A DNA stretch of 64,000 bases, from positions 806,001 through 870,000 of the forward strand of contig CP084616.1 of assembly GCA_025917655.1 (NCBI GenBank). Reading direction: 5' to 3'. The stretch comes from Chlorella sorokiniana (Eukaryota > Chlorophyta > Trebouxiophyceae > Chlorellales > Chlorellaceae). The notes under the pieces are model-generated. The model did not search any database. It had not been told where the DNA came from and was given only the letters and a program-made list of their open reading frames with translations. Below are positions 3,861 through 20,500 of the stretch, piece after piece (position 1 is the first letter of the stretch; every line of letters starts with the position of its first letter). Made by a program: the position numbers and the translations under genes.

Positions 3861-4901
3861 ATGCCACCAGACGCAGCGCGTGCGGGCGTGCCGCCGCTGC
3901 CGCCAGCCAGCCACATGCCGCCAGAGGACGCCGAGCTGGCAGAGCTGGCAGGCCGTGCGCTGCGCGTGCTTCTGGGATCCGGCTCCGTCTTGCTGCACAC
4001 GCACCTGCGCATGGCGGTCCTAGGGCGGGGCGACGGCCTCAACAGCGGTGCCGCTAGCCGAAGGTGTGTTTTGTTGCTGCTGCCAATGACTGCATGTTCA
4101 GAGTGCCAAGGCCTGACAGCTTGCTTGCCGATGCTTGCATGTGCGCATGCTGGTGCTTGCTTTGATTCAGCATATTGTGTGATGCGCCTTGCAACTGGGT
4201 GCAGCAAGAGCCTGCTGGAGCTGGCGGTGGCGTGGCTGGTCGAACAGGGGCTGGTGCTGCGCCAGGGGCAAGGCCCCTTTGCCGCCCTCACGGTGAGCCG
4301 GCGGCAGCTCGCCCAGAGCGCTTCCTCTGCTGCTGCGCCGCAAAGCAGTGCAGTGGGCCGGGCCGCTGCCACATGTGCAACTGCGGTCCTGCTTGGACGA
4401 CACGCCCCGCGCAGGTGCCAGACGCCGCCCTGTCCAAGGCGGAGGCGCTCGCCTACTCTGAGTTCCCTGATGAGGGGCAGCTGCCGCTGCTGGCGACGGC
4501 GGGACGCGCGCTGGGCTCCGCCCCGCGCCCCGCCTCGTGCCTCAACCGCTTGCGACGACACTCCTCGCCGCGCCAGCTGGGCAGCCGCATGGCAGGTGCG
4601 GGCTGCTGGGGGAGGGACCCGTGCTGCTGTTCCTGGATTTGCCTGCGTTGGGTGACAGCGCATGATTGAATGAAATCAGGCCGACCCCACTAGCAGCCTG
4701 TGTTACCAAGAAGGCTGTGCGCCTGGCCATCCTCGCTGCAGGGATAGAGAAGGCTGGTGTGCGGCGCAGTAAGCGCGGCATGGGCGAGGACCTCAGCAGC
4801 CAGATGGTGAAAAAGATGCGCATGCAGGAGAACATCGGCTGCCAAAGCGGCAGCGGCATGCCGTTCAGTGCCAGCGGCGGCTGCGTGGCCATGAGCCCGT
4901 G
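3861..4901 (+). CDS. hypothetical protein, family not recognised
   Basis: A plausible spliced plus-strand gene that I cannot name. Exon 1 from about 3861 reads acidic and helical (PEDAELAELAGRALRVLLGS) and ends at a donor near 4064 (CGAAG|GTGTGT). Exon 2 begins after GGTGCAG near 4205 with SLLELAVAWLVEQGLVLRQG, which looks like a winged-helix segment. A third exon from about 4415 carries DAALSKAEALAYSEFPDEGQ, then, after a frame change, GPVLLFLDLPALG. A fourth open piece (4747-4901) is basic: GVRRSKRGMGEDLSSQMVKK. That piece recurs as a degenerate copy at 11819, so it lies inside the segmental duplication. Start, exon joins and membership of the last piece in this gene are uncertain. Confidence 0.35.
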
Positions 4902-5134
4902 AGCTGATCTGCCAGCAGGTCTTGAAGGCCTGCGGTGCCTGCAAACTTGTATGGAGCCCTGCTCTGGGCAGACTCCACGCCGTTTGCATGTTTCTGCTGC
5001 CCCGAGTCATAGCTATAGAACTTCGCTGCTGTTCACTGTCCCCCTCTGTCCATGCACTGGTGAGTCCCAGATTTCAGGACACCCGCCCAGCGTCCTTTTC
5101 GCTTTTCTGCTGCAGCACGTGTTAGGGCAGTACG

Positions 5135-5139
5135 TTACA
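5135..5139 (-). terminator. TGTAA polyadenylation signal for Hint gene A
   Basis: TGTAA on the minus strand about 206 nt past the Hint A stop. TGTAA is the usual chlorophyte poly(A) signal. The equivalent stretch in unit 2 (near 12200) has diverged and lost it. Confidence 0.5.
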
Positions 5140-5344
5140 GTGCCACATCACCTGCCGCCCCCCAGACAAGATGGAGATGCGAGGCAGCAGTGTCGTTCAG
5201 CATCAGGAGGTGTCCATGCTTGGAGAGTCAGCCGCCAAACAGTCACGGGCAAGCCAAGCCAACAAAAGTGGTATGGACTGATGGATGGAATGAAAACGTA
5301 GAGCACGTGGGTCACAGGCTTATTCTTGATCGGGTGTGAGCACC

Positions 5345-8300
5345 TCATTCTTCCTTGCGCTTGCCGTGTGCACCCCGTGCACTGTTCTTGTGCGCGGCAC
5401 GGCGGCGGCCCGCCGCCCGCACGACTGCAGCGGCCAGAGCGATCAGGGCGGCGGCCTGGCCCCACACCATCAGGTTGCCCACCACGAAGCAGGCCTTTGG
5501 GCCATCAAGAAACAGGGGCAGGTTGTTGAGGCGCCAGGCCGCGGCGGGGCCGATCGCACGGTACAGCCAGTACAGCGGCAGCAGCGCCGCATCCACCACC
5601 GCGGGCACCAGCGGGTCGGCGGCGGCGGGCAGGCTGTTGCGGCCGAGGATGGGGCCCCACCTGCGGTCAGTTGGAGGCACACAAGAGCAAAGGTTACACG
5701 TTGAAAATGGCCTGAAAACGCTGGGATCAGCGCAATTGAAGCCAGCAGGGCGGAGCCAGCCGCACTCACTTGGTGTGGGGGCTGGCCACAACGCCGTCCA
5801 CGACAATGCCACGGGCCTGCGGAGGGGACAGCAGCCCGTCAGCCTGCTGCAGGGATGCCGGGTGGCGCTGGGGGCCCCCACCCGACAGCTCTGTGCCTGA
5901 GCAACGCAGTGCCAGCACCGCGTAGCCAATCCCCTCGGCAAGATCACTGTCACGGGCAGCCTCCAGCCAAGCCAGCTCAGCCTGCAGCCTACCCGCACAA
6001 AGGGGCTGTACGCCCCCAGCTCCCGCTGGTCTTCCACCGACAGCACGCAGGCGGGGCGGCGCGCCGCGCTGGCGTTCTGCCCCACCGTCCATGCCACCAT
6101 GCCGGCATGCACGGAGGGCGGCAGCGCCATGAAGTGGTCGCGCTGCCAGTTGAGCCGCCCGGCAGCCAGGGTCCACGCCGCCTGCACGCTCGCAAGCCCC
6201 CTCCTCCCCGCTGGCGACTGCCTGGGCCAGCGCGGCGCATGCGCCGCTCGGGTCCTCCCCTGCCGCCAGGTAGTGGGTGTGGGACAGCTGCAGGCGATGG
6301 GTGGCCCGCCGCCAGGCTCCGCCACCACCAGCGTCGCAAAGTTGCCCATGCCGGCCGGGTTGCGGTGATTCCAGAAGTACACCTCCTCGTACCGCCGGCG
6401 GCCGTCCCACCCCACCGCCAGCACGCGGTCGCCGGAGCGCAGGTCAGACATGGGCAGGGTGCGGCCGTCGGGCAGCTGCACGGTGGCGCTGCCGGGAAGC
6501 AGATGCAGGTGTTGCCTTCGCAGGCCAGGCCGCCGCCGCAGCAGGACAGCTCGGTGTCACAGCAGGGCAGCTCGTCCGCGTTGCACTGCATCGGGGGCAG
6601 GGGGCAGCAGCTGCTTTGCTAGGGAGAGGACCTGCAGGGAAGCGCCAGCGGGTGCAGCGCCCACCTCCGGTGGGCAGGGCAGCTGGTCCAAAGCTTGGGA
6701 GCAGGCAGGGCGGGCCAGGCAGCCCTCACCGTGCCGCAGTTGCCGAAGACGCAAGCGTTTGTGCCCTGGCCGCAGCACTCGCTGTTCCTCGTGCACGGTT
6801 GTCCCACATCCTTGCAGGTCGGGCTGCGGAAGGAAGGCGACAGGCAGCAGGGTTGGCGTTGGCCGGCAGCGCGGCCACAGGGGCGGACCGCATGTTGCGC
6901 TGCCTTCAGCGGCCAGCCCAGCATCTGCACCACTTCGAGCAGCTAGCAAAAGTGCTGCGGCGGCTGTGCCGCACCAGCTGGGCAAGTCGTACGGGTTGCA
7001 ATAAAAATCAGATGGGGTGGAGTCCAAGCCCGCGGCGTTAGTGGCGGTGGCATTGAAGCTGTACTGAGTGCCGCAAAGCACGCCGTTGAACTTCACCTCG
7101 GTCGGTCCGGACTGCATGGGCGGCCCACAACACGGGTCAGCAGCAGCCGCAGCAAAACGTGCCAGAATGTGCGCATGGGCGGTGGTGGTGGTCAGTTTGC
7201 GCTAGGGTGGCGGCGATGACTCTAAATGTGTGGAGGGTGGGTGGGCGGCGGGATTGGGGCAGCGTTGGCAGCCCTCGAGCGCACACCGCAGCTGCACGCA
7301 TGCCAGGCGGCAGCAGCCTGGTTGCGGCGCGCCAAGCACAGGCAGGGGGTGCCAGCTGGCGGCCGGCCGCACCGCAGCTGCCACCTCCACGGACTGCAGG
7401 GCGTGCCGCCGCTGGTTGGCGTGCCAGTGACCGTGTAGTACTGGATGGCTGCGGGTGGGATGGCATGGGGGGGGGGGCGAGAGGGGCGCGTGTGACGGGT
7501 GGTCGGGAGGGAGGCCTGCCAGCCGAGGGCCGGGCCGCTCACCCCCATCACTGGCGCCTGTCCAGGCTGGCGCTTCCACGGAAACGGTGACGGTGTAGGT
7601 GGCGGCGCAGTCAGCGACGTAAGAGACGTCCGTGATGGTGGGAGGATCGGGGCGCCGTAACATCTGTATACACCTCCAGTGGTGGTCTCGCCGCATGCTG
7701 TGCCGTCGCAGCAGGTCGGATCGGCCGCTGTCAGCAAGCTGCGGCGACGGCACCCCTGCAGACGCCGGCCCTCAAGACCCCGGCACGGTTCGCAGCTGCT
7801 GTTCTGGGCGGCGCAGGACGGAGGGCTTGGTGGCGGGGGCCCTGGCGGCGGGGGGCTGGGCGGCGGGGGCTGGGTGGCGGGGGGCTTGGTGGCGGGGGCC
7901 CTGGCGGCGGGGGGCTTGGTGGCGGGGGCTTGGTGGCGGGGGCCCTGGTGGCGGGGGCTTGGTGGCGGGGGCCTGGCGGTGGAGGGCTAGCGCTGCAGCC
8001 AGGACAGGCAGGGTGGTGCATTGCGCAGGCAGGGCAGGGGGAGTGGGCTGGTTGTGTGCGGCATGCAAGGGCGACCTCCTGCGCTGTTGCCCACTCTGCA
8101 AGCCACGCAGGCCAGGAAGCTGAGGGCGCTCACCAGGCGGGCAGGGTGAAAGGGCTGGGCGTCACAAGGCCGACCTCGGACAGCAGCTGGGCCGTGTTCA
8201 TCATGCTCGCCGTGAAGTTGTACGTCGAGCCGCAGGCCAACGAGAAGCTCACGGCGGCGCCGCCCTGCAGGGCCAAGCGCCGAGGAGCGGCAGCCTCAGG

Positions 8301-10748
8301 CCGTCTATCGGCGGGGGCACAGACAGCAGGCTGCCTGCCCGGCAAGTGCGAAGCATGCGCTGCCGCCAGCCGCAGCAGTGCATCAGTGCGTCGCCGGGCG
8401 CCTGCTCACGTCGACACCCGGCAGGCCGGAGCTCTGATAGTTTGACAGGCACAAGTCGGTCGTGGTTGCGTTCACGAAGTACCGGCTGATGCCTGAGCGG
8501 GAAGGGGGCGGCGCGCGGGCGCATGTGGTGAGGGGCGGCAAGTGTTGATCCATGGGGCCAGGGCCTGGGGGTGCCACGGCAGCCCGCCGGGCTGCGGCGG
8601 AGCCAGGCTTCACCTGCTGTGTCGGCGCCGGCGTACAGGGTCCGCACCGTGACGGTGACGTTGTAGGTGCCGCCGAGCTCTGCCACAGCAGTGATGTTGA
8701 AAACTGAGGGGGTCGGGCTGCCCCTGGCACACCCCCTCGGTGCCGCTCACGTCGTAGCCGCAGGAAAAGCCGGGGCAGCAGGGCGTGAAGGATTGCGGCA
8801 CCTGGCGCACGGAGGTGCCGGCCAGGCGGCGCCTGGTGCACGAGTCGCCACAGGGGTCGCAAGAGGTGCTGTTCTGAGGGGCGCATGGGGCTGGGGGTGG
8901 CGGCGAAGGGGGCGGCTGGGGGGTGGGCTTGGCGGAGGAGGGCTGGGCTTGGGACTCGGCGGAGGAGGGCTGGGCTTGGGGCTCGGCGGGGGAGGGCTCG
9001 GCGGGGGAGGGCGGGGCTTGGGGCGCGGCGGGGGAGGGCTGGGTTTGGGGCGTGGGCGCGGGGAGGTGGGCTGGGTTTGGGGCGTGGGCGCGGGGGAGGT
9101 GGGCTGGGCTTTGGGCGCGGCGGGGGAGGGCGGGGCTTGGGGCGGGGCGGGGAGGGCGCGGCTTTGGGCGCGGCGGTGGAGGGCGCGGCTTGGGGCGAGG
9201 AGGAGGTGGGCTGGGCTTGGGACGTGGGCGTGGGGGAGGAGGAGAGGGGCGGGGGGAGGGCGGCGGCGGGTCGTAGCGCGGGATGACGTTCCACACCAGG
9301 AGGATGGAGGCGTTGTTGGGCTGGAAGGGGTAGAGGCCGATCTCAGGGTCCCCGCACATGGGCGGGGCCTTGGTGTTTTTATCACGCCCAGGTATCGGCG
9401 GGAGCAGCGGCCCGTGCGGGACTGCGGGCGCAAGGGAGTGAGCAGGGGGAGCGCATCGCAGGTTGCGGGTGCAGGCGAGGGCAAGGGGTGGAGGCCGAAG
9501 GGCACGCTCTCGATATGTAAGCATACTTTGTGTACAAGTCTACCCTAAGACCCTGCAAAGGCCGACAGGCTCACCGCGGCGCGGATGTAGAACTGGCCAT
9601 GCTCGTTGGGCTGGCCCGCCACCGCGGGCGCGCGCTCCAGCACCCACTCGGTGTTGGTGCTCAGCGCGGTGGCGCTCACGCCGCTGTCAGGGCAACGCCC
9701 GAGTAGCCAAAGTAGGAGCGGGCGGGGCAGCCGCCGCCCGGGAAGCTGGCAGCCCGGCACTGAATCTGCCACGAGGGAGCACGAGCGGCGAAGGCGGCAG
9801 CGAGTGGAGGGCTGGTTAGAGAGGTGGTCGGACAGGCAGCCACGCCCGGCTTGTGCGCGACGCCGATGGCATGTGTCGGAGCAGCAGAGTCGTCGCTAGG
9901 CTGCCCCTCGCATGCTGCCATGCAAACCTGGAAGGTGATCTTCTTTCCGATGAGGTTGGTGGGGTTGCCTGTGACGGAGGGCGCCTTGGAGGTAAACCAG
10001 GTGGATCGCACGCCGCCGCCGTACGTCCAGGTCCTAATGTTGTCGTTTTGGCTGCGGTGCGGGTGATGAGTGCGTGATCAAGAGGCGTGGGGGGGTGGGG
10101 TGGGGTGGGGTGGGTGGGTGGGGGGTGGGGGCAGGGGGTCGCTGGTGCATGCATGCGGGGGAGGGCTGCCAGAGCTGGCGGCTTGGCTGTACCGGCAGGT
10201 GCCACGCGCACGCCACTCACTTGCAATAGTTGGTGCCAGCCCAGCCTGCACGTGTAGAAGAATGAGGGGGCCGTCGACACTGTTGCAAGGCGGGGAGGGC
10301 AGCCAGCTACGCATGGCAGCGGCGGCCAGCAGGCTCCCGTCCGCGGCCCACCTGCGCCGGGCGGACTCGTGCATCCATCGCGGCCGATAAGGTAGATCCA
10401 CTTGCGCCCAGGATCCACTTCCTTGGTGGGGTCAAAGGCGTGAGCTGCAGAGGAGGGCCATGGATTGGTAGTGCTTGCTGTGGCGACGGCGGCGGCAGGG
10501 AGCAGCCGGCACTGCGGGCACGGAATGTCGGCCGGGCACAAGCGCGCCAGCCCTCTCGCCGTGGCTTGCGTTGCCAAATGTGAACCCCAAGCACCGTGAC
10601 TTGTGGCTCCAGCCGGTGGCAGCCCCGCACGTCCCCATCAAGGGCCCAGCTGAGTCCTCACAGGTGGAGCCCCATGCGACGCACCTATCCCTGTTAGCAG
10701 CAAGATCTGCACTAGCAGGCCGCAGGGCAGCAGAAACCGCCGCGGCAT
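5345..10748 (-). CDS. secreted proline-rich protein with FN3-like, cystine-knot-like and Hedgehog-type Hint domains, copy A
   Basis: Large extracellular-type protein, probably self-processing. Start at 10748: Met followed by Arg-Arg and a hydrophobic stretch (RFLLPCGLLVQILLLTGI), a signal peptide. Exons: 10748-10685, 10444-10352, 10244-10221, 10051-9928, 9765-9575, then from 9421. An N-terminal module (FDPTKEVDPGRKWIYLIGRD, NDNIRTWTYGGGVRSTW) has no family I recognise. Two Pro-rich rods follow (about 9275-8886 and 7985-7815), separated by a Cys-rich/beta module, then FN3-like repeats (LCGTQYSFNATATNAAG), a six-Cys knot pattern (CKDVGQPCTRNSECCG) and the Hint domain. The Hint domain shows catalytic CFPGSATVQLPDG, SHTHYLAAG (block with the conserved His) and GIVVDGVVASPHTKW. 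A hydrophobic helix (CFVVGNLMVWGQAAALIALA) and a basic tail end the protein. At least four single-base repairs are needed. Confidence 0.82.
7815..7985 (-). repeat. second proline-rich rod of Hint A
   Basis: Imperfect tandem units that read GGCGGGGGCTTGGTGGC and variants on the plus strand, and SPPPP/PATKPPPPGP-type peptides on the minus strand. The G-rich strand has closely spaced G3-G6 runs able to form quadruplexes. This repeat type is the right-hand part of the fused rod in Hint B. Confidence 0.85.
8886..9275 (-). repeat. first proline-rich rod of Hint A
   Basis: Imperfect repeat of about 24-27 bp reading GGCTGGGCTTGGGGCTCGGC on the plus strand. It encodes KPSPPPPRPK-type peptides in extensin/pherophorin style. 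It begins directly after the sequence IIPRYDPPPPSP and ends at the Cys-rich segment CAPQNSTSCDPCGDSC. Confidence 0.85.
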
Positions 10749-11001
10749 CGTGTTTCCAGCAGGCGTCCCGGGAGGGGCTGCTGGTCCCTGCTAGAAGCTC
10801 TCGAGCGGTGAAGGCGAAAGCAGGCTCCCGGGGGCGTCGTGAACCCGAAGCAGCCTTCCGGGGAAAGGCCCGGCTGAGGTCCGCCAATCTGGTGACTCTC
10901 CTGGGTAGCAACGCAGCTCGAATGTGACTCACTCCTTCGGAAATATCAGGATACAAGAGTGCATGACGCGTACTGCAGCGCTACTGGTATCCTCACACGT
11001 G

Positions 11002-11006
11002 TTACA
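11002..11006 (-). terminator. TGTAA signal downstream of the truncated TARBP1 copy
   Basis: Minus-strand TGTAA about 290 nt past the relic stop at 11298. It is probably the ancestral TARBP1 3' end. I find no TGTAA in the corresponding space between the intact TARBP1 stop (17514) and the Hint B start (17123). Confidence 0.5.
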
Positions 11007-11297
11007 ACCCCCTCCGACCGGAGCACCAGGTGTATACAGTGGCCACGTGCTCACGCAGGGCGATGTTCACTGAAAGGAAGGAATAAGGCGAGTGGCCATG
11101 CTCGATAGCAGTTGCGGATGCATAGCTGCCGCCACCTAAGGAACCACTGGGCAGAGGGTGCAAGAGTGGTAGGCAGCCTACCAGTGGTAAGCAACTGCTC
11201 CAAAACAACTGCACATTGGCAGGCCCGCAATGCATGCCACTGCAAGCCGGCAGTGACTGGACGACACGGTGCGTTGGGGGCCAGTCAATCCAATCGC

Positions 11298-11612
11298 TCA
11301 GCTTTCGCCGGCAGCGGGGCTGGCGCCTGCAGCAGCGGCCAGCGCCTGCTGCGTGTACTGGTGGATGGCCAGGGCGCCCACGTGGACGTTGAGCGACCTG
11401 CAGGAGGGGGTGGGGCGCTGAAGCGCGAGCCGTCGCTGCTGCCGCTGCCGCCCCTTGCCACCACGCGCACAACAGCCCGCAGCGCAGCCTCGCCTGACCA
11501 CCCCCAGCTGCGGGATCTCCACCGTGTGGTGCATCAGCGCCAGCAGGTCGGCGGGGATGCCCTCCTTCTCGCGCCCCAGCAGCAGCACCGTGCGCCGCGG
11601 GAAGGAGAAGGC
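11298..11612 (-). pseudogene. truncated TARBP1 3' end (last two exons only)
   Basis: Relic of the SpoU methyltransferase C-terminus. Exon 11612-11494 encodes FSFPRRTVLLLGREKEGIPA and ends at the same GC donor as the intact gene (GGTCAG|GCGAGG). Exon 11397-11298 encodes SLNVHVGALAIHQYTQQAL and has its own stop. Compared with the intact copy, one codon is deleted (VHVSGALA became VHVGALA), which removes the Ser of the family motif SLNVHVSGA. All upstream exons are absent; homology stops in the preceding intron at the duplication junction. Without the rest of the SPOUT domain it cannot be a working enzyme, although it keeps a 3' signal. Confidence 0.88.
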
Positions 11613-12416
11613 CTGCTCCGCGCAGGGGCGGGCGGGCAGGAGGGCCACTCTAGTGGGCGACACAGGCAGAGCATTCCATCCTTGGCATGGCTGCCACATG
11701 TGCGCATCCACAGAGAGGACGACAAGCTTCCTAAGGCAAAGGGTGGGCTGATGGCAGGGGGCTGGCGGGCTGCCGTGCCGGCCCCCTCCCCCGCGCCAAG
11801 CCAACCGGCAGGTGCGTTGAGAAGGCTGGTGTGCGGCGCAGTAAGCGCGGCATGGGCGAGCACCTCATCAGCCAGATGGTGAAAAAGATGCGCATGCAAT
11901 CCTGCAGCTCTGTAGTCCTGAAAGCAACGGCTGCCAGGGCGGCGGCGGCATGCCCGTCAGCGTGAGCCCAAGAGCCGATCTGCCAGCGGGTATTGTGAGG
12001 CCTGCAGTGCTTGGAACTTGTATGGAGCCCTGCTCTGGGTAGAATCTACGCCGCCCGCATGTTTTTGCTGCTGCCCGGTGTCGTACTCGCAGACTTTCCG
12101 CTGCTGTTCGCCTCCCTCCCCTGTCCATGCAATGATGAGTGCCAGTTCTCCAGTGCACACGTCCAGTGCCCCTTCTTGCCTTTCTGCTGCAGCACATGTC
12201 AAGGCGGCATGCTGCAGAAGACAGCATGCTGCAATGCCACATCACCTGTCGCCAGACAAGATGGAGATGCGAGGCAGCAAAGGTCGTCTGACATCAGGAC
12301 GTGCCCTCGCTTGGAAACTCAGCCGCCAAACAATCGCGGGCACGTCAAGCTTGTGGTGTGGAATGTTGAAATCAGCAGCGTGAATCACAGGCTTATTCTT
12401 GATCGGAGGTGAGCGC

Positions 12417-15400
12417 CTATTCTTCCTTGCGCTTGCCGCGGGCACCCCGGGCCATGTGCTTGTGGATGTTGTGGATGGATCGGCGGCGGCCCGCCGCCCG
12501 CACGACTGCAGCGGCCAGAGCGATCAGGGCGGCGGCCTGGCCCCACACCATCAGGTTGCCCACCACGAAGCAGGCCTTTGGTCCATCCAGGAACAGGGGC
12601 AGGTTGTTGAGGCGCCAGGCGGCGGCGGGGCCGATCACGCGGTACAGCCAGTACAGCGGCAGCAGCGCCGCATCCACCACCGCGGGCACCAGCGGGTCGG
12701 CGGCGGCGGGCAGGCTGTTGCGGCCGAGGATGGGGCCCCACCTGCAGTCGGTCAGAGGCACAAAAGACCAGGCAGAAGAGCAAAGGTTACACATTTGAAA
12801 ATGGCGTGAAAGATGCTGGGATCAGCGCAAGTGAAGCCAGAAGGGCGGAGCCAGCCACTCACTTGGTGTGGGGGCTTGCCACAACGCCGTCCACGACAAT
12901 GCCACGGGCCTGCGAACAGAACAGCAGCATGTCAGCCTGCTGCAGGAATGCCACGTTTCCCTGGCCCCTCCATCCGACAGCTCTGTGTCTGAGCAGCGCA
13001 GTGCCAGCACCGACTAGCCGATTCCCGCTGCAAGATCATTCATCATATGCAGCCTCCAGCCAAGCCAGCCCAGCCTGCAGCCTACCCGCACAAAGGGGCT
13101 GTACGCCCCCAGCTCCTGCAGGTCTTCCACCGACAGCACGCAGGCGGGGGCTGCGCCCGCGCTGGCGTTCTGCCCCACCGTCCACGCCACCATGCCGGCA
13201 TGCACGGAGGGCGGCAGCGCCATGAAGTGGTCGCGCTGCCAGCTCAGCCGCCCGGCAGCCAGGGTCCACGCCGCCTGCGCGCTCGCAAGCCCCCCTTCTC
13301 CCCGCTGGCGACTGCCTGGGCCAGCGAGGCGCATGCGCCGCTCGGGTCCTGCCCCGCCGCCAGGTAGTGGGTGTGGGACAGCTGCAGGCGACGGGTGGCC
13401 CCGCCGCCCGGCTCCGCCACCACCAGCGTCGCAAAGTTGCCCATGCCGGCCGGGTTGCGGTGGTTCCAGAAGTACACCTCCTCGTACCGCCGGCGGCCGT
13501 CCCACCCCACCGCCAGCACGCGGTCGCCGGAGCGCAGGTCAGACATGGGCAGGGTGCGGCCGTCGGGCAGCTGCACGGTGGCACTGCCGGGAAGCAGATG
13601 CAGGTGTTGCCTTCGCAGGTCAGGCCGCCGCCGCAGCAGGACAGCTCGGTGTCACAGCAGGGCAGCTCGCCCGCGTTGCACTGCGTCGGGGGCAGGGGGC
13701 AGCAGCTGCTTTGAGAGGGAAGCGCCAGCGGGGTGCAGTGCCCGCCTCTTGTGGACGGACAGCTGGTCCACAGCATGGGAGCAGGCAGGGCGAGCGGGCC
13801 AGGCAGCCCTCACCGTGCCACAGGTGCCGAAAATGCAAGCGTTTGTGTTCTGGCCGCAGCAGTCGCTGTTCTTCGTGCACGTCTGTCCCACATCCTTGCA
13901 TGTGGGGCTGCAGAGGGAAGGCGGCATGCGGCGAAGTTGGCACGGGCGACCGAGACGTTGGCATCGGCCAGCGGGGCGGCCAGGGTGGCGGACTGCTTTG
14001 CATTCTGCCTTCAGTGGCCAGCCAGCATCTGCGATTCTTCAACGCTTTGGCACCAAAACTGCAAAAATGCTGCGCCAGCTGTGCCCCACCAGCTGGGCAA
14101 GGTGGCTGGGTTGCGTGCATACTGAGATGGGCCGGAGTTCAAGCCCGCGGCGTTGTTGGCTGTGATAGTAAAGAAGTACTCAGTGCCGCAAAGGATGTTG
14201 GCGAACTTCACATCGAAAACTCCGGACTGCAAGGCGCATGGGTGCCCACAGCACATGTCAGCAGCAAGTAAGCAGTGTGCATGGGCGGTGGTGGTAGTAA
14301 GATTGCACCAGGGTGGTAGTGATGACGTTTGTGTGGCAAGGGGGTGGCTGGCGGGGCGGGGGCAGCATGGGCCGCCCTTGAGCGTGCACAGCAGCTGCAC
14401 GCATGCCAGGCAGCGTCAGCCTATTTGTCAAGCACAGGCGGGTGCCCAGCTTGCGGCAGGCCGCACCCCAGATTCGACCACCGTAGCTGCCAAGGTTAAT
14501 CCGCCGTTGGTTGGCGTGCCAGTAATTTGGTAAAACATCATGCCTGTGGGTGGAATGGGATGGGTCTTGGGGAGGAGGGGTGGGTGAGGTGGGGGAGGGG
14601 AGTTTGAAGGGTGTTCGGGAGGCAGGCATGTCAGCTGAGGGCTGGTGCTGCTCACGTCCATCTGTGGCGCCTGTCCAGGCTGGCCTTGCCACGTAAACGG
14701 TGAGGGTGTAAGTGGCGTCGCAATCAATGCCGTATGAAACGTCCGTGATGGTGGGAGGATTGGGGGGCCGTAACATCTATGTAAACCTGCGTTGTTGATC
14801 GGGCCACAAGCTGTGCCGGCGCAGCAGGGCGGGTCGGCTGCTGTCAGAAGGCTGCGGGGACGAGAGCCCTGCAGGCGGCGGCCTGCAGGCCCCTGAAGAG
14901 GGTCGCAGCTGCTGTTCTGGGCGGCGCAGGACGGCGGCGGCGGGGGGCTTGGTGGCGGGGGCTTGGCGGCGGGGGCTTCGTGGCGGGGGGCTTGGTGGCG
15001 GGGGCCTGGCGGCGGGGGCTTGGTGGCGGGGGCTTGGTGGCGGGGGCTTGGTGGCGGGGGCCTGGCGGCGGGGGCTTGGTGGCGGGGGGCCTGGCGGCGG
15101 GGGGCTTGGTGGTGGGGGCCTGGTCTCGGAGGAGGCGGGCTGGGCATGGGACTCGGCGGGGGAGGGCTGGGGCTCGGCGGAGGGCTGGCGCTCGGCGGGG
15201 GAGGGCTGGGCTTGGGGCTCGGCGGGGGAGGGCTGGGCTTGGGGCTCGGCGGGGGAGGGCTGGGCTTGGGGCTCGGCGGGGAGGACTGGGCTTGGGGCGC
15301 GGCGGTGGAGGGCGCGGCTCTGGGCGCGGCGGTGGAGGGCGCGGCTTGGGGGCGGGTGGAGGGCGCGGCTTGGGGCGCGGGGGTGGAGGGCGGGGCTTGG

Positions 15401-17123
15401 GGGCGCGGGGTGGAGGGCGCGGCTTGGGGGGCGCGGCGGTGGAGGGCGCGGCTTGGGGGCGGGGGTGGAGGGCGGGGCTTGGGGCGCGGGGGTGGAGGAA
15501 GCGGCTTGGGGGCGGGGGTGGAGGGCGGGGCTTGGGGCGCGGCGGTGGAGGGCGAGGCTTGGGGGCGCAGCGGCGGTGGGCTGGGCTTGGGGCGTGGGCG
15601 GGGGAGGAGGGGAGGGGCGGGGGAGGGCGGTGGCGGGTCGTGGCGCGGGATGATGTTCCACACCAGGAGGATGGAGGCGTTGTTGGGCTGGAAGGGGTAG
15701 AGGCCAACCTCAGGGTCCCCGCACTTGGGCGGGGCCATGGTGTTCTTGATCACCCCAAGGTACAGGCGGGAGCAGCGGCCAGTGCGGGACTGCGGGAGCA
15801 AGGAAGCGAGCAGGGGCCAGCTTACGGAATGGTTGATGGTGCAGGCAAGGGCAATGGGGGCAGACAAAGGGGCCAGCTCTTCAGATGCAAGCATGCTATG
15901 TGTACAAGTCTACCCCTTGGACCCTGCAATGCCCGACAGGCGGCTGCCCTCACCGCGGCGCGGAGGTAAAACTGGCCATGCCCAATGGGCTGACCCGCCA
16001 CTGCTGGTGCTCGCTCCAGCACCCACTCGGTGTTGGTGCTCAGCGCGGTGGCGCTCACGCCGCTGTCAGGGCAGCGCCCGAGTAGCCAAAGTAGGAGCGG
16101 GCGGGGCAGCCGCCGCCCGGGAAGCTGGCAGCCCGGCACTGGACCTGCCACGAGGGAGCACGAGCGCGGCGGCGGCAGCAACGGCAAGCTTGAACGGTGG
16201 GCAGGCAGCGTTGTGTGCAGGCGCCGACGGCTTGCGAGTGCGGCGGATTCGTTGCCAGGCTGCCCTTCTCTCGCATGCTGCCACACGCACCTGGAAGGTT
16301 ATCCTGTTGCCGATGAGGTTGGCGGGGTTGCCGGCCACGGAGGGGGCCTTGACAGTGTACCAGGTCGTGCGCACGCCGCCGCCATAGGTCCAGGTAATAA
16401 TGTTGTCGTTGTTGCTGCGGTGCAGGCATGGGTGACGATTGTGTGTTGGGGGTGGGGAAGGGGGTCTCTGTGCTGGTGCGAGCATGCGGGGGAGAGGGCC
16501 ATGCATGTCCAATGAGACAAGGGCTGGCGGCTGGGCTGTACCAGCAGGTGCCACACGTGCGTCACCCACCCGCAATAGTTGGTGCCAGCCCAGCCTGCAG
16601 GCGGATGAAGGAACACGGGGCCATCAATGCTGTTGCGAGGTGGGAGGGCGGCCAGGCAGCAATGCCTACGGCGCATGGCAGCGGCGGCCAGCAGGCTCCA
16701 ATTTGCGGCCCACCTGCGCCGGGCGGACTCGTGCATCCATCGCGGCCAATCAGGTAGATCCACTTGCGCCCAGGATCCACTGCCTTGGTGGGGTCAAAGG
16801 CGTACGCTGCAGAGGAGAGCAGTGGGCATAGTACGCGCGTGCAGGGGAAGCCAGCGGCTGGGCAGCGGCAGGGAGCTGCCATTCACTGCGGGCACGGGAT
16901 GCCCGCCAGATAAAAGCGCGCCAGCCCCGTGTATTGCGTTGCCAAACGTTAGTCCCAAGCACCGTGAAGCGTGAAACCGGGGGAGCAGCCCAGACCCTAA
17001 ACCCTAGGCGGCGACAGTGTGGCGGCTCGGCTGAGCCCTCGGAGGTTATACACCAGACACACCTAGCCCACTCAGCAGCAAAAACAGCGCCAGTGGGTCG
17101 CCGGATAGCACGTGCCGCGGCAT
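12417..17123 (-). CDS. secreted proline-rich protein with FN3-like, cystine-knot-like and Hedgehog-type Hint domains, copy B
   Basis: Tandem paralogue of copy A. Start at 17123 opens a signal peptide (hydrophobic LALFLLLSGL). Exons: 17123-17063, 16806-16714, 16594-16570, 16414-16291, 16144-15954, then from 15789. Order: N-terminal module (FDPTKAVDPGRKWIYLIGRD, NNDNIITWTYGGGVRTTWY), one fused Pro-rich rod (about 15645-14935), Cys segment, FN3-like repeats (LCGTEYFFTITANNAAGLNS), knot-like CKDVGQTCTKNSDCCG, and Hint (CFPGSATVQLPDG, SHTHYLAAG, GIVVDGVVASPHT). A membrane helix and basic tail follow, with the stop at 12417. It lacks the Cys-rich/beta module that separates the two rods in copy A. 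Four frame breaks coincide with those of copy A. The product is probably secreted or surface-anchored and could autocleave at the Hint Cys; no ligand or role can be read. Confidence 0.82.
14935..15645 (-). repeat. fused proline-rich rod of Hint B
   Basis: About 0.7 kb of imperfect GC-rich repeats. The left part (plus coordinates) is of the GGCGGGGGCTTGGTGGC type and the right part of the GGCGCGGCTTGGGGCGCGG type, matching the second and first rods of Hint A but joined directly. Several very long opposite-strand open frames here are artefacts of the repeat composition. Confidence 0.88.
16994..17007 (+). repeat. telomere-like ACCCTAAACCCTAG in intron 1 of Hint B
   Basis: Two partial CCCTAAA units in tandem, contained in the first intron, 3' of exon 1 (17123-17063) in gene order. 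The equivalent place in Hint A lacks it. It resembles a plant telo-box or a small interstitial telomere scar. Confidence 0.6.
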
Positions 17124-17513: not shown

Positions 17514-20500
17514 TCAACCCAATCGCTGAGCTTTTGCGACAGCGGAGCTGGCGCCTGCTGCAGCAGCCCCGCTGCCGCCTGCTGCAGCGGCCAGCGCCTG
17601 CTGCGTGTACTGGTGGATGGCCAGCGCGCCCGACACGTGGACGTTGAGCGACCTGCAGGGGGCGCTTCACATGCGCTCGAAAGCCGTCGCCACTTCCGTC
17701 TCCTTGCCACGCGTGCCCCGCAGCCCGCAGCGCAGCCTCGCCTGACCACCCCCAGCAGCGCAGCCTCGCCTGACCACCCCCAGCTGCGGGATCTCCACCG
17801 TGTGGTGCATCAGCGCCAGCAGGTCGGCGGGGATGCCCTCCTTCTCGCGCCCCAGCAGCAGCACCGTGCGCCGCGGGAAGGAGAAGGCCTGCTCCGCGCA
17901 GGGGCGGGCGGGCGGGCGGGCGGGGGCAGGCGGGCCATGCAGTGGGCGACACAGGCAGGCGCTCCATCCTTGCGCATGTGCGAATGCGCAGGGAGGATCG
18001 CAAGCTGCCAAAGGCAAGGGGTGGGCTGGTGGCAGGGGTGCAGGGGGCAAACACAGTCCCATGCCGCCCCCACCCCCCACCCCCCACACCCACCACTCCC
18101 CCCCACCGCCCCAGCCGAGTGCCGCCGCAGCCCACCTGCAACGGCACAGACTCCGCGCTTTGCTCCAGCCCCACCAGCGACCAGCCCCGGGCAGCCTGGG
18201 CGCGCAGCCAGCCCGCCAGCCCCGCCTCGGGCACCTCCAGCAGCGGCAGCCAGAGGTGGGCGCTGACGGCGATGCTCCTGAACTCAGGCTGCCGCGTCGT
18301 CGCCAGGTCAGCCAGCACCAGGCCGCCAGCCCTGCGGCGCGGTCAGCAGGGTGTGCACGCATGTGGCCGCCACAAACAGCTGACGATGCAGCAAGCTGTG
18401 CCCATGTGTTTCCTTGTGCTACCCAGGGCGGAGCCTCGGGAGGAGAAGCGCGAGGGGCGGCGGCGGCGCTCAGGGCTTCAGGGCTGGGCCAGGCTCGGCC
18501 CACGGTTCTCGGCACCAGCGGCCCTCTTGCCGCATTTCAACTGCCCGCCCCTCACACACGTACATGCATGAGCACGCGCCCCCTCCCCGACGCCACCCAA
18601 CGCGCCTGAACACCTCGCAGGTGCGAGCCAGCCCAGCCAGGTTGGGGGCGCGGCTCAGCAGCGAAGCAACCACCAGCAGCTCCTGCCTGGGGCCCGCCCG
18701 ACTGGCGGCCGCCGCCTCCGCCGCCGCCAGCTCAGCCTCCAGCCCATCCTCGCCGCCGCTGCGCAGCAGCGCCGCCGCGCCCAGCGCCGCCGCCCACGCG
18801 CCGCCCCCGCCCTTCTTCTGCCAGTTGGCGGCTGCAGAGGACGCCGGCGGCTGCGACGTCGCGGCAGGGCCGCGCAGCGTGTGCTCCCGGGCCAGCGCCG
18901 CCGTGCGGACCTGGTGCAGGTCGTGCCGTAGCTGCTGCCGCTCCGCCGCCAGGAACGCCGCCACCTCCTCCAGCAGCGACTGCGGCAGCACAGTGGGGCA
19001 GCACAGCGAGGCGGGCGAGGTGGGAGGCCATGCTTCGTGCCCTGCTTCATTCAGCCGGGCAAGCAGGCCTTTGCAGGCGCAACCACGGCTGGCATCACGG
19101 CAGCAGTGCACCGCGGGCGGGGCAGCAGCGCAGCCGCCGCCAGCCTGGCGTGGCTCACCGCCGGGCGCCCTCGAACGACGCATCGCAGCGGTACACCGCC
19201 CCGTCCTGCACCGCTTCGGAGCATGGCCCACCCATTCAACACAAGCAAGCAGGATCGCTTGGCGCGTCCTCAGCATGCACAGCGCGGCGGGCGGCCCGCG
19301 GCAGCGCCAACGCCACCGGCTGCACCTGGCTGAGGATGGCGGCGGGGGTCACGGCCGCGTCGAGGTCAAAGGCATCGAAACAGAAGGCGTGGGACAGCCC
19401 CCGGCGCAGCCGCCCCACCTCCTCGTTCGCGCTGCTGCGGGGCGGGGGAGGGAGGCACGCGGCGGCGGGGAGGGTTGCTGCAAGGCAGGACCAGCGGGGA
19501 GATGGAGCGCGGCAGAGCGCTGCCGCCGCCAGCAAGGCCTGCGTGACGCAAGAGCGGCCGCCGCGGAGGGCCGCAGCAGCGGCGCCGAGCGGGTTTGGGG
19601 CTGCCCGGCGCGCCTGAAGAAGCGGAGGAGGGCGGCGGCGGTGGCGTCTCGCGCCGGCAGCGCGGGCAGCAGCTCAGAGGCGCCACAGCACCAGCTGGGC
19701 AAAGGTGCGCAGGGCGTGGACGTGGGAGAGGGCCCAGGGCGCCACCGCCTCGGCCACCTCGCCCAGCAGCAGGCCGTCCGCCGGCTCCTGCTGCCGCTGC
19801 TCAGCCCGCCTCGGCTGCTGCTGCTGCTGCTCCTCTGCTGCGGCTCCAGCTGCCTGGGGGCGAGCCAGGCCCAGCGCCGCCGCCCGCGCCGCAACGAGGA
19901 TGAGGGAGGAAAGCGCGTGGCTGCCGCTGGAGCTGCAGTCGCGCAGCAGCGGCAGCACGCGCGCGCGCAGCAGCGCGGGGCGGCGGCGCAGCAGCTGCAG
20001 CGCGACGGTGTCGGCGTACTGCCTGACGTTGGCCACCTCGGCGGTCTCCAGCACACGCAGCACCGCCTCAAAACCTGCGGACGGCATGCGTGCACCCAAC
20101 GCACCCGGCTACTTGGCAACTTTGGAGGCTGGCCACTTGTACCCTACCCAAGCAAGAGGGGAAAGCAGGGGCAGCGAGCAGAGCGGCGGGACGTCGTCAC
20201 ACGCAGAAGTTGGCGGCAGCGGCGGCATGCCCCACCTTCCTCCACTTCATCTTCGGGAACAGCGGGGCTCAGCACGCACAGCGCCTGCCACAGCCGCACC
20301 TGCACGGCACAGTTGCAGGGTTTCCGCAGCAAACTGAGCGCGGTGCGATGGAAGGCAGGACCCCGCTGGCCAACCTGGCCCAGCGGCGCCGCCGCCCGAT
20401 GCACAGCGGCAGCACGGTGACAGCTTCTGGGCACCTTCTTGCGGTGCGTGGTGCTGAGGGGGTGTACCGCGCTGCCCCCAGCTCCGGGTCAGACCTCGCC

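What the first reader, a model, noticed from the sequence alone, without database searches (positions are those of the whole stretch)
5345..17123. Tandem pair of algal Hedgehog-type Hint proteins with cell-wall-like ectodomains
Seen: two paralogues, each with signal peptide, unrecognised N-terminal module, Pro-rich rod, FN3-like repeats, a six-Cys knot pattern (C-x6-C-x5-CC-x6-C-x4-C), a Cys-dense linker, a Hint domain with CFPGSATVQLPDG, SHTHYLAAG and GIVVDGVVASPHT, then a membrane helix. Known: Hint domains autocleave before the Cys and, in Hedgehog, attach a lipid. Inference: the adhesive extracellular part may be released, or transferred to an acceptor, while the C-terminal part stays in the membrane. 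This would be a self-processing matrix or adhesion system built on extensin/pherophorin-like rods. I know of no characterised protein with this exact combination.
Basis: partly seen in the sequence, partly recalled or inferred. Interest (0 to 1): 0.9.

Follow-up and report, generated by a model that had tools for sequence, protein, structure and literature searches.

The report
Hedgehog-type self-cleaving algal wall proteins
A green alga carries two neighbouring genes for secreted, wall-like proteins that end in the self-cutting module of animal Hedgehog proteins, with a histidine where Hedgehog has its key aspartate; the module itself is known from other algae, but this combination looks new and can be tested in the laboratory.

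Summary
Two tandem minus-strand paralogues (5345-10748, 12417-17123) each encode a hydrophobic N-terminus, an unrecognised N-terminal domain, Pro-rich rods, Cys/FN3-like modules, two knottin-like Cys motifs, a Hedgehog-type Hint module, then a hydrophobic helix with a basic tail. The read-through gene 2 protein scores 68 bits against Pfam Hint (cut-off 29.7). A profile of the alga's four Hint genes matches the fly Hedgehog Hint structure 1AT0 over residues 1-143 of 145 (E 4.7e-24). Cys1 and the TxxH His are kept (Thr is Ser in the pair). The Hedgehog general base Asp303 is His in the pair and, through a slip, in a third gene; the engineered D303H mutant (6TYY), reported active with wider substrate range, outscores wild-type fly Hint in three searches. 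Reading-frame slips at homopolymers also break an HSP70 gene, so assembly error is likelier than pseudogenes. The N-terminal domain recurs at seven more loci without a detected Hint, so Hint was probably added to a wall-protein family. Non-animal 'Hog' proteins, including kelch+Hint in red algae, are known; hence a new variant. Cleavage, acceptor and wall location are inferred.

The parts
5345..10748 (-). Gene 1 (whole coding span, about 15 exons)
   Evidence: Exons delimited by GT/AG sites and paralogue comparison; one donor inside the last FN3-like domain not resolved
12417..17123 (-). Gene 2 (whole coding span, 12 exons, read-through protein about 985 aa)
10685..10748 (-). Gene 1 signal peptide exon
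   Evidence: Hydropathy 1.95 over 19 residues; no SignalP available
17063..17123 (-). Gene 2 signal peptide exon
   Evidence: Hydropathy 1.59 over 19 residues
9270..10444 (-). Gene 1 N-terminal domain (NTD), five exons
   Evidence: Same domain at the pair and seven more loci, alignment A2
15637..16806 (-). Gene 2 N-terminal domain (NTD), five exons
7548..9290 (-). Gene 1: two units of Pro-rich rod + Cys module + FN3-like segment
   Evidence: Reading of frames; Pro 45% in first rod
14656..15640 (-). Gene 2: long Pro-rich rod + Cys module + first half of FN3-like domain
   Evidence: Pro 46%; fn3 22 bits, below cut-off 25
6975..7111 (-). Gene 1 last FN3-like exon
14090..14226 (-). Gene 2 last FN3-like exon
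6494..6823 (-). Gene 1 two knottin-like Cys motifs on two exons
   Evidence: in the own genome four of five match rows lie in this pair, the fifth has E 0.1
13589..13907 (-). Gene 2 two knottin-like Cys motifs on two exons
5770..6501 (-). Gene 1 Hint module (Cys1 codon 6499-6501; His at Asp303 position 6365-6367; SxxH 6273-6284; motif J exon 5770-5816)
   Evidence: PF01079 over cut-off for one exon; same residues as gene 2 at these positions
12863..13596 (-). Gene 2 Hint module (Cys1 codon 13594-13596; His at Asp303 position 13460-13462; SxxH 13367-13378; motif J exon 12863-12909)
   Evidence: PF01079 43.6 and 68 bits; 6TYY, 1AT0, 7E2I
5345..5660 (-). Gene 1 C-terminal exon: ARR-like stretch, hydrophobic helix, basic tail
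   Evidence: Hydropathy 1.83
12417..12741 (-). Gene 2 C-terminal exon: ARR-like stretch, hydrophobic helix, basic tail
   Evidence: 94% DNA identity to gene 1 exon

Best explanation
The pair encodes non-Hedgehog Hog proteins: secreted, membrane-tethered precursors of hydroxyproline-rich wall or surface glycoproteins. The Hint module rearranges the Ile-Cys bond before Cys1 into a thioester (Cys1 and the TxxH-type His). A nucleophile then resolves it, helped by a His in place of the Hedgehog Asp303, which frees the ectodomain (NTD, rods, FN3-like and knottin-like modules) from the membrane-bound Hint stub. The most likely nucleophile is a membrane sterol or another small hydroxyl compound, which would leave a lipid-tagged ectodomain at the outer membrane face; plain hydrolysis, which would release the ectodomain into the wall, is the close alternative. 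Shown here: homology, alignment of catalytic positions, low replacement rate in the Hint part, architecture. Inferred: cleavage, acceptor, location, hydroxylation of the rods.
For: PF01079 at 68 bits, 57.4 bits for one exon of the C9 paralogue, 102.4 and 103.1 bits for the C7 and C9 models. Profile of four algal Hints hits 1AT0 with E 4.7e-24 over residues 1-143. Cys1, TxxH His and motif J align. His at the Asp303 position in the pair and, by alignment A1, in C7; 6TYY (D303H) outscores wild type 1AT0 in three sequence searches. D303H reported active and tolerant of other sterols (review PMC9163320, section 11). Hint plus C-terminus: dN/dS 0.22 over 244 codons between the copies against 0.58 in eight ectodomain blocks. 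C-terminal hydrophobic helix 1.83. NTD recurs at seven loci without a detected Hint, as expected if Hint is an added processing module. A nematode Hog protein, WRT-1, was reported autocleaved in vitro (PMC1636047, passage).
Against: No biochemical or transcript evidence. Residue before Cys1 is Ile, not Gly as in Hedgehog; from memory, beta-branched residues there slow related intein reactions. Thr of TxxH is Ser in the pair; fly T326A was greatly reduced (PMC9163320). The second Hint Cys (fly Cys400) is Pro in the pair; mutations of Cys400 are reported to inhibit both steps (PMC4695875, passage), though its replacement is common in non-animal Hogs. A long insert follows SxxH. Frames are broken in the assembly. 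No Patched domain at E 0.001 in the genome. Similarity to the sterol-recognition region is weak: the profile match to human Shh runs to residue 394 at low quality. In the two single-sequence searches human Shh (7E2I), which has Asp there, ranks above 6TYY by 0.1 and 1.3 bits. The model of part of the domain has pLDDT 62.6, and Foldseek gave no match at E 0.001; best 1AT0, E 0.027, ahead of 6TYY, 0.05.
Confidence: 0.55

Rival explanations
1. Hydrolytic processing only: Hint cuts itself off with water as the nucleophile, releasing an unmodified wall protein; no lipid or other acceptor is attached.
For: Asp303 is missing (His in the pair and C7, Ser in C9); the D303A mutant of fly Hedgehog could not mediate full cholesteroylation but kept DTT cleavage, and D303 mutants cleave faster with DTT (PMC9163320, passages). 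No Patched domain found at E 0.001.
Against: His at this position was reported to preserve sterol transfer in the fly protein. C9, with Ser, is the better candidate for this mechanism.
Confidence: 0.25
2. The Hint module is a folded relic or structural cap: no longer catalytic, kept as a membrane-proximal domain.
For: Ile before Cys1, Thr to Ser, missing second Cys, long insert.
Against: Cys1 and the TxxH His are invariant in all four Hint genes of this genome, and the Hint part changes least in protein between the copies.
Confidence: 0.12
3. Pseudogene pair: the frame slips are real and were spread by gene conversion.
For: Four slips occur at the same places in both copies, and the Hint part shows low synonymous divergence (0.06), as gene conversion would give.
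Against: An HSP70 gene on contig C3 is broken the same way in conserved stretches. Two gene 1 slips are absent from the matching, open stretch of gene 2. Paralogue L054 is open through the first slip with the same length. dN/dS 0.22 in the Hint part, though gene conversion and only 18 changes weaken that point.
Confidence: 0.08

Closest known systems
Cyanidiophyceae kelch + Thr/Pro/Ala-rich + Hint proteins ('hedgehog proteins' of Cyanidioschyzon; PMC9812998, PMC13353863, passages read)
   Same: Pro-rich linker between an N-terminal module and Hint; families with and without Hint; subtelomeric copies. The C7 paralogue here (rods, propeller-like sequence, Hint, about 45 kb from a contig end) is similar in plan.
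   Different: Red alga; no NTD, FN3-like or knottin-like modules mentioned in the passages read; the window pair lies about 815 kb from a contig end.
Metazoan Hedgehog C-terminal Hog domain (1AT0, 6TYY, 7E2I)
   Same: Whole Hint module, Cys1, TxxH His, motif J
   Different: No Hedgehog signalling domain found; His for Asp303; no second Cys; Ile for Gly before Cys1; a hydrophobic helix after Hint and only weak likeness to the sterol-recognition region
Nematode hedgehog-related proteins (warthog, groundhog, quahog)
   Same: Secreted N-terminal domains that occur with and without a Hog domain; proposed extracellular-matrix role (PMC1636047, passages)
   Different: N-terminal domains described there as nematode-only; cuticle instead of algal wall
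Red-algal, moss and protist Hog proteins (Burglin 2008, PMC2362128)
   Same: New N-terminus, often with signal peptide, before a Hog domain; motif J Cys often replaced
   Different: No green alga named in the sections and passages read; most upstream regions there matched nothing known

Membership tests
Hog (Hint + SRR/ARR) proteins, non-Hedgehog | Hint module of the Hedgehog type (PF01079 over cut-off, better than Vint or intein models) | tested here: met
   68 bits vs cut-off 29.7; Vint 12.5 bits vs cut-off 27
Hog (Hint + SRR/ARR) proteins, non-Hedgehog | Catalytic Cys1 at the start of Hint | tested here: met
   Aligned to residue 1 of 1AT0; invariant in four genes; needs read-through of a slip in the pair, open in the C9 gene
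Hog (Hint + SRR/ARR) proteins, non-Hedgehog | TxxH motif | tested here: met
   TPDH in C7 and TPGH in C9; SHTH in the pair, so His kept and Thr replaced by Ser
Hog (Hint + SRR/ARR) proteins, non-Hedgehog | Motif J at the end of Hint | tested here: met
   IVVDGVVAS aligned to fly IVVNSVAAS; Cys replaced, as reported for other non-animal Hogs
Hog (Hint + SRR/ARR) proteins, non-Hedgehog | Secreted N-terminal region | tested here: inconclusive
   Hydrophobic N-terminus; no signal-peptide predictor on hand
Hog (Hint + SRR/ARR) proteins, non-Hedgehog | SRR/ARR after Hint | tested here: inconclusive
   Profile match reaches Shh residue 394 at low quality; a hydrophobic helix follows in the pair and C7, not in C9
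Bona fide Hedgehog | N-terminal Hedgehog signalling domain | tested here: not met
Bona fide Hedgehog | General base Asp303 (Asp46 of Hint) | tested here: not met
   His in the pair; His in C7 and Ser in C9 by alignment A1
Bona fide Hedgehog | Autocleavage with cholesterol transfer | not testable with these tools
   Needs biochemistry
Pherophorin or extensin | Family model hit in ectodomain | tested here: not met
FN3 domain proteins | fn3 over curated cut-off | tested here: not met
   22.0 and 19 bits vs 25
Intein | C-terminal splicing residues and C-extein | tested here: not met
   Hint ends in VVASPHTK; no His-Asn there; inspected by eye

The most novel reading that the evidence does not exclude
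A self-ligating wall anchor: a Hedgehog-type Hint with a natural His in place of the general-base Asp transfers a whole hydroxyproline-rich ectodomain, through its thioester, onto a non-cholesterol hydroxyl acceptor (algal sterol, glycolipid or wall glycan). This would be a eukaryotic, one-shot counterpart of bacterial sortase, made by adding Hint to an existing family of wall proteins.
Probability: 0.12. Interest if true: 0.85.

Novelty: new variant of a known kind. Interest (0 to 1): 0.52.

Why it matters
The function of non-animal Hog proteins is unknown (so stated in PMC13353863, passage). Here a green alga, probably near Chlorella, has wall-like proteins both with and, as far as the search shows, without Hint, so the effect of Hint on related ectodomains can be compared. 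The natural His at the Asp303 position matches a mutant that was engineered in fly Hedgehog, and gives a direct test of whether evolution used that swap to change the acceptor. If cleavage or ligation is shown, it links Hedgehog chemistry to building a cell surface and would favour a matrix role before signalling.

Tried and rejected
Giant-virus or prokaryote origin: profile-derived scans of viral contigs (0 confirmed of 76 pattern matches) and genome contigs (0 confirmed of 145) found no relative. Both scans need short peptide patterns, so distant relatives could be missed, and eukaryote genomes other than this one could not be searched.

N-terminal domain: no Pfam match over cut-off (Megourin at 17 and 13.9 bits, cut-off 27, taken as spurious) and no solved structure (single sequence, best E 0.057; profile, best E 0.033; antibody light chains head both lists).

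C7 propeller-like region: no Pfam match.

Structure: only an 84-residue unbroken stretch was folded (alignment A3, three rows: pLDDT 62.6, pTM 0.54). Foldseek listed 242 matches at E 10 and none at 0.001; 1AT0 and 6TYY came first (prob 1.00, E 0.027 and 0.05, 39 and 42 columns). The stretch lacks Cys1, so the active site could not be superposed.

Signalling pathway: Patched PF02460 gave 0 matches at E 0.001.

Counts corrected: the first selection counts and one block of the second were read out of frame; one search replaces them for the Hint part. Its 244 codons include the second knottin-like exon (30 codons), and leave out three codons where the copies differ at several bases and the stretch between the two slips around 6197 and 6309 (13290 and 13404 in gene 2), which holds the SxxH motif.

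Rows dropped: the N-terminal-domain alignment A2 has 7 rows: the pair, C7 and four of the seven extra loci; L056, L058 and L059 were left out for incomplete pieces, and some rows join exon pieces without a checked junction. Of the seven extra loci, the downstream frames of three (L054, L055, L060) were read.

Neighbour gene: a first SpoU query was typed with joined and partly recalled letters; one search repeats it with letters from the frames (32.6 bits, cut-off 29.7).

Searches were script errors, a coordinate error, a paper not held, a report whose fields did not fit the form.
Full report
What is there. The two genes are real, tandem and on the minus strand. Gene 1 spans 10748 to 5345, gene 2 17123 to 12417. 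Comparing the copies gives exons bounded by GT/AG, apart from one unresolved donor in gene 1. DNA identity is 92-98% in the exons E2, E3, E5, the start of E6, Hint and the C-terminus; 70-87% in the signal-peptide, E4, Cys/FN3-like and first knottin-like exons; and 73-93% in the ten introns compared. The read-through gene 2 protein is about 985 residues: hydrophobic N-terminus; N-terminal domain (NTD) of about 190 residues; long Pro-rich rod; Cys module; FN3-like domain; two knottin-like Cys motifs; Hint; a stretch like the adduct-recognition region; hydrophobic helix; basic tail. Gene 1 has two rod + Cys + FN3-like units.

Frame slips. To be read through, gene 2 needs four slips and gene 1 seven, the rods not counted, all at runs of one base. 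As a control I looked at an HSP70 gene on contig C3: two pieces overlap in different frames, and the sequence, read by eye, shows two slips at G-runs in conserved stretches. A second HSP70 gene, on C1, shows only intron-sized gaps in the table. Paralogue L054 is open through the first slip with the same number of residues. Homopolymer assembly error is therefore the likely cause. Four slips are shared by both copies, which could also reflect gene conversion, since synonymous divergence in the Hint part is low.

The Hint module. One unbroken stretch of gene 2 scores 43.6 bits with PF01079; the read-through protein 68 bits. The genome search gave six match rows at four places: the pair, one gene on C9 and one on C7; C7 and C9 models score 102.4 and 103.1 bits. 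A profile of the four (alignment A1) matches PDB 6TYY at 91.4 bits, 1AT0 at 88.6 bits (E 4.7e-24, residues 1-143), fly Hedgehog in 6TD6 at 84.4 and human Shh in 7E2I at 65.8 bits, the only four matches at E 0.1.

Catalytic positions. Cys1 and the TxxH His are invariant in the four genes; the Thr is kept in C7 and C9 and is Ser in the pair. The fly general base Asp303 aligns with His in the pair. By alignment A1 it is His in C7, directly after a slip whose handling fixes that column, and Ser in C9. The D303H mutant 6TYY outscores the wild type 1AT0 with the gene 2 stretch (28.2 against 24.2 bits), with the read-through Hint (32.9 against 28.7) and with the profile. In the two single-sequence searches human Shh is slightly higher still (28.3 and 34.2 bits). 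Motif J reads IVVDGVVAS, followed by PHT, AHS or ELT in place of the Hedgehog CYA. The residue before Cys1 is Ile in the pair, Ser in C7 and C9.

What is published on these positions. The review PMC9163320 (passages and section 11) reports H329A inactive, T326A greatly reduced, D303A unable to mediate full cholesteroylation but active with DTT, and D303H with near-identical structure, preserved activity and enhanced use of coprostanol (over 200-fold). The primary D303H paper was not held, so this rests on the review; PMC8529194 repeats it (passage). PMC4695875 (passages) adds that Cys400 mutations inhibit both steps. PMC13060885 (passages) reports D46A blocking cholesterolysis and speeding thiolysis in vertebrate domains. 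PMC7906309 (passages) describes the sterol-recognition region.

Selection. Between the two copies the Hint and C-terminal part, with the second knottin-like exon, has dS 0.060, dN 0.013, ratio 0.22 over 244 codons with 18 changes. Eight ectodomain blocks have dS 0.218, dN 0.127, ratio 0.58. The enzyme part is the conserved part; its lower dS suggests gene conversion there.

The family. The NTD query finds, besides the pair, seven loci: C11 at 716 kb (91% identity), C8, C1 and four on C2 (19 rows). The PF01079 search hit none of these, with the caveat that it reads six frames without regard to introns. L054 continues into rods with repeated Cys and FN3-like segments and no Hint in the frames read. 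C7 joins a related NTD (34% identity to gene 2) to rods, a propeller-like stretch without a Pfam match and Hint. C9 is a short Hint protein with a hydrophobic N-terminus (by eye) and no hydrophobic helix at the end. So NTD proteins seem to exist with and without Hint, as in the nematode hedgehog-related families (PMC1636047, passages; the worm matrix review PMC11304992, passages).

The organism. The genome has chlorophyll a/b-binding genes (41 match rows); an LHCII exon matches best PDB 8BD3 (173.5 bits), which I recall to be Chlorella ohadii. It is thus a green alga, probably near Chlorella.

Prior art. Burglin 2008 (PMC2362128; abstract, sections 5 and 9 and passages) describes Hog proteins in red algae, mosses, alveolates and other protists, with new N-termini and frequent loss of the motif J Cys; no green alga is named in what I read. 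Cyanidiophyceae have kelch + Thr/Pro/Ala-rich + Hint genes (PMC9812998, passages), and PMC13353863 (passages) counts 17 Hog genes in Cyanidioschyzon and calls the function unknown; PMC5405695 and PMC1955436 (passages) also mention these genes. PMC5784728 (passages) calls Hint domains widely distributed among eukaryotes; PMC4054682 (passages) covers choanoflagellates. Ten paper searches listed no paper whose title or abstract start shows a green-algal Hog protein or a Hint fused to an extensin-like rod. Three lists were cut (20 of 136, 10 of 26, 15 of 814), most listed papers were not opened, among them PMC3499766, the one that holds the terms pherophorin, hedgehog and hint, and the library lacks most subscription papers.

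Mechanism. Secretion would place the ectodomain outside and the basic tail inside. Hint would form a thioester at Ile-Cys1; the His at 303 could activate a hydroxyl acceptor near the membrane. The result would be a lipid-tagged or free ectodomain and a membrane stub. I give 0.55 to this reading with a sterol-like acceptor or close variant, 0.25 to hydrolysis only, 0.12 to a dead module and 0.08 to pseudogenes. None of the chemistry is shown.

Verdict. New, as far as I could search, are the green-algal wall-type ectodomain with apparently Hint-less relatives in one genome, and the natural His at the Asp303 position; whether the latter has been noted elsewhere I could not establish beyond.

Noticed in passing
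window 11469-11645 and 17745-17921; also 4747-4826 and 11819-11898: A SpoU methyltransferase exon (PF00588, 32.6 bits, cut-off 29.7) is present on the upstream side of both Hint genes (97% identical copies), and another repeat (98%) lies downstream of both. The tandem unit of 6.3-7.1 kb thus took part of a neighbouring gene along.
   Followed up: partly
L016 (G000 C7, 2,597,500-2,607,499): Third Hint gene with a related N-terminal domain, rods and a propeller-like region without a Pfam match; His at the Asp303 position next to a slip; about 45 kb from the contig end.
   Followed up: partly
L015 (G000 C9, 81,000-90,999), positions about 5,020-6,795: Short Hint protein with Ser at the Asp303 position, frame open through Cys1, 103 bits to PF01079.
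   Followed up: partly
L054-L060: Seven loci with the same N-terminal domain and no detected Hint; five of the seven lie within 100 kb of a contig end, like the subtelomeric Hog/kelch families of red algae.
   Followed up: partly
L040 (G000 C3, 1,270,400-1,272,700): An HSP70 gene is broken by slips at G-runs in conserved stretches: a warning about homopolymer errors in this assembly.
   Followed up: partly
window 5345-6585 against 12417-13680: The Hint part of the two genes shows much lower synonymous divergence (0.06) than the ectodomain (0.22), which suggests gene conversion limited to the 3' half.
   Followed up: no
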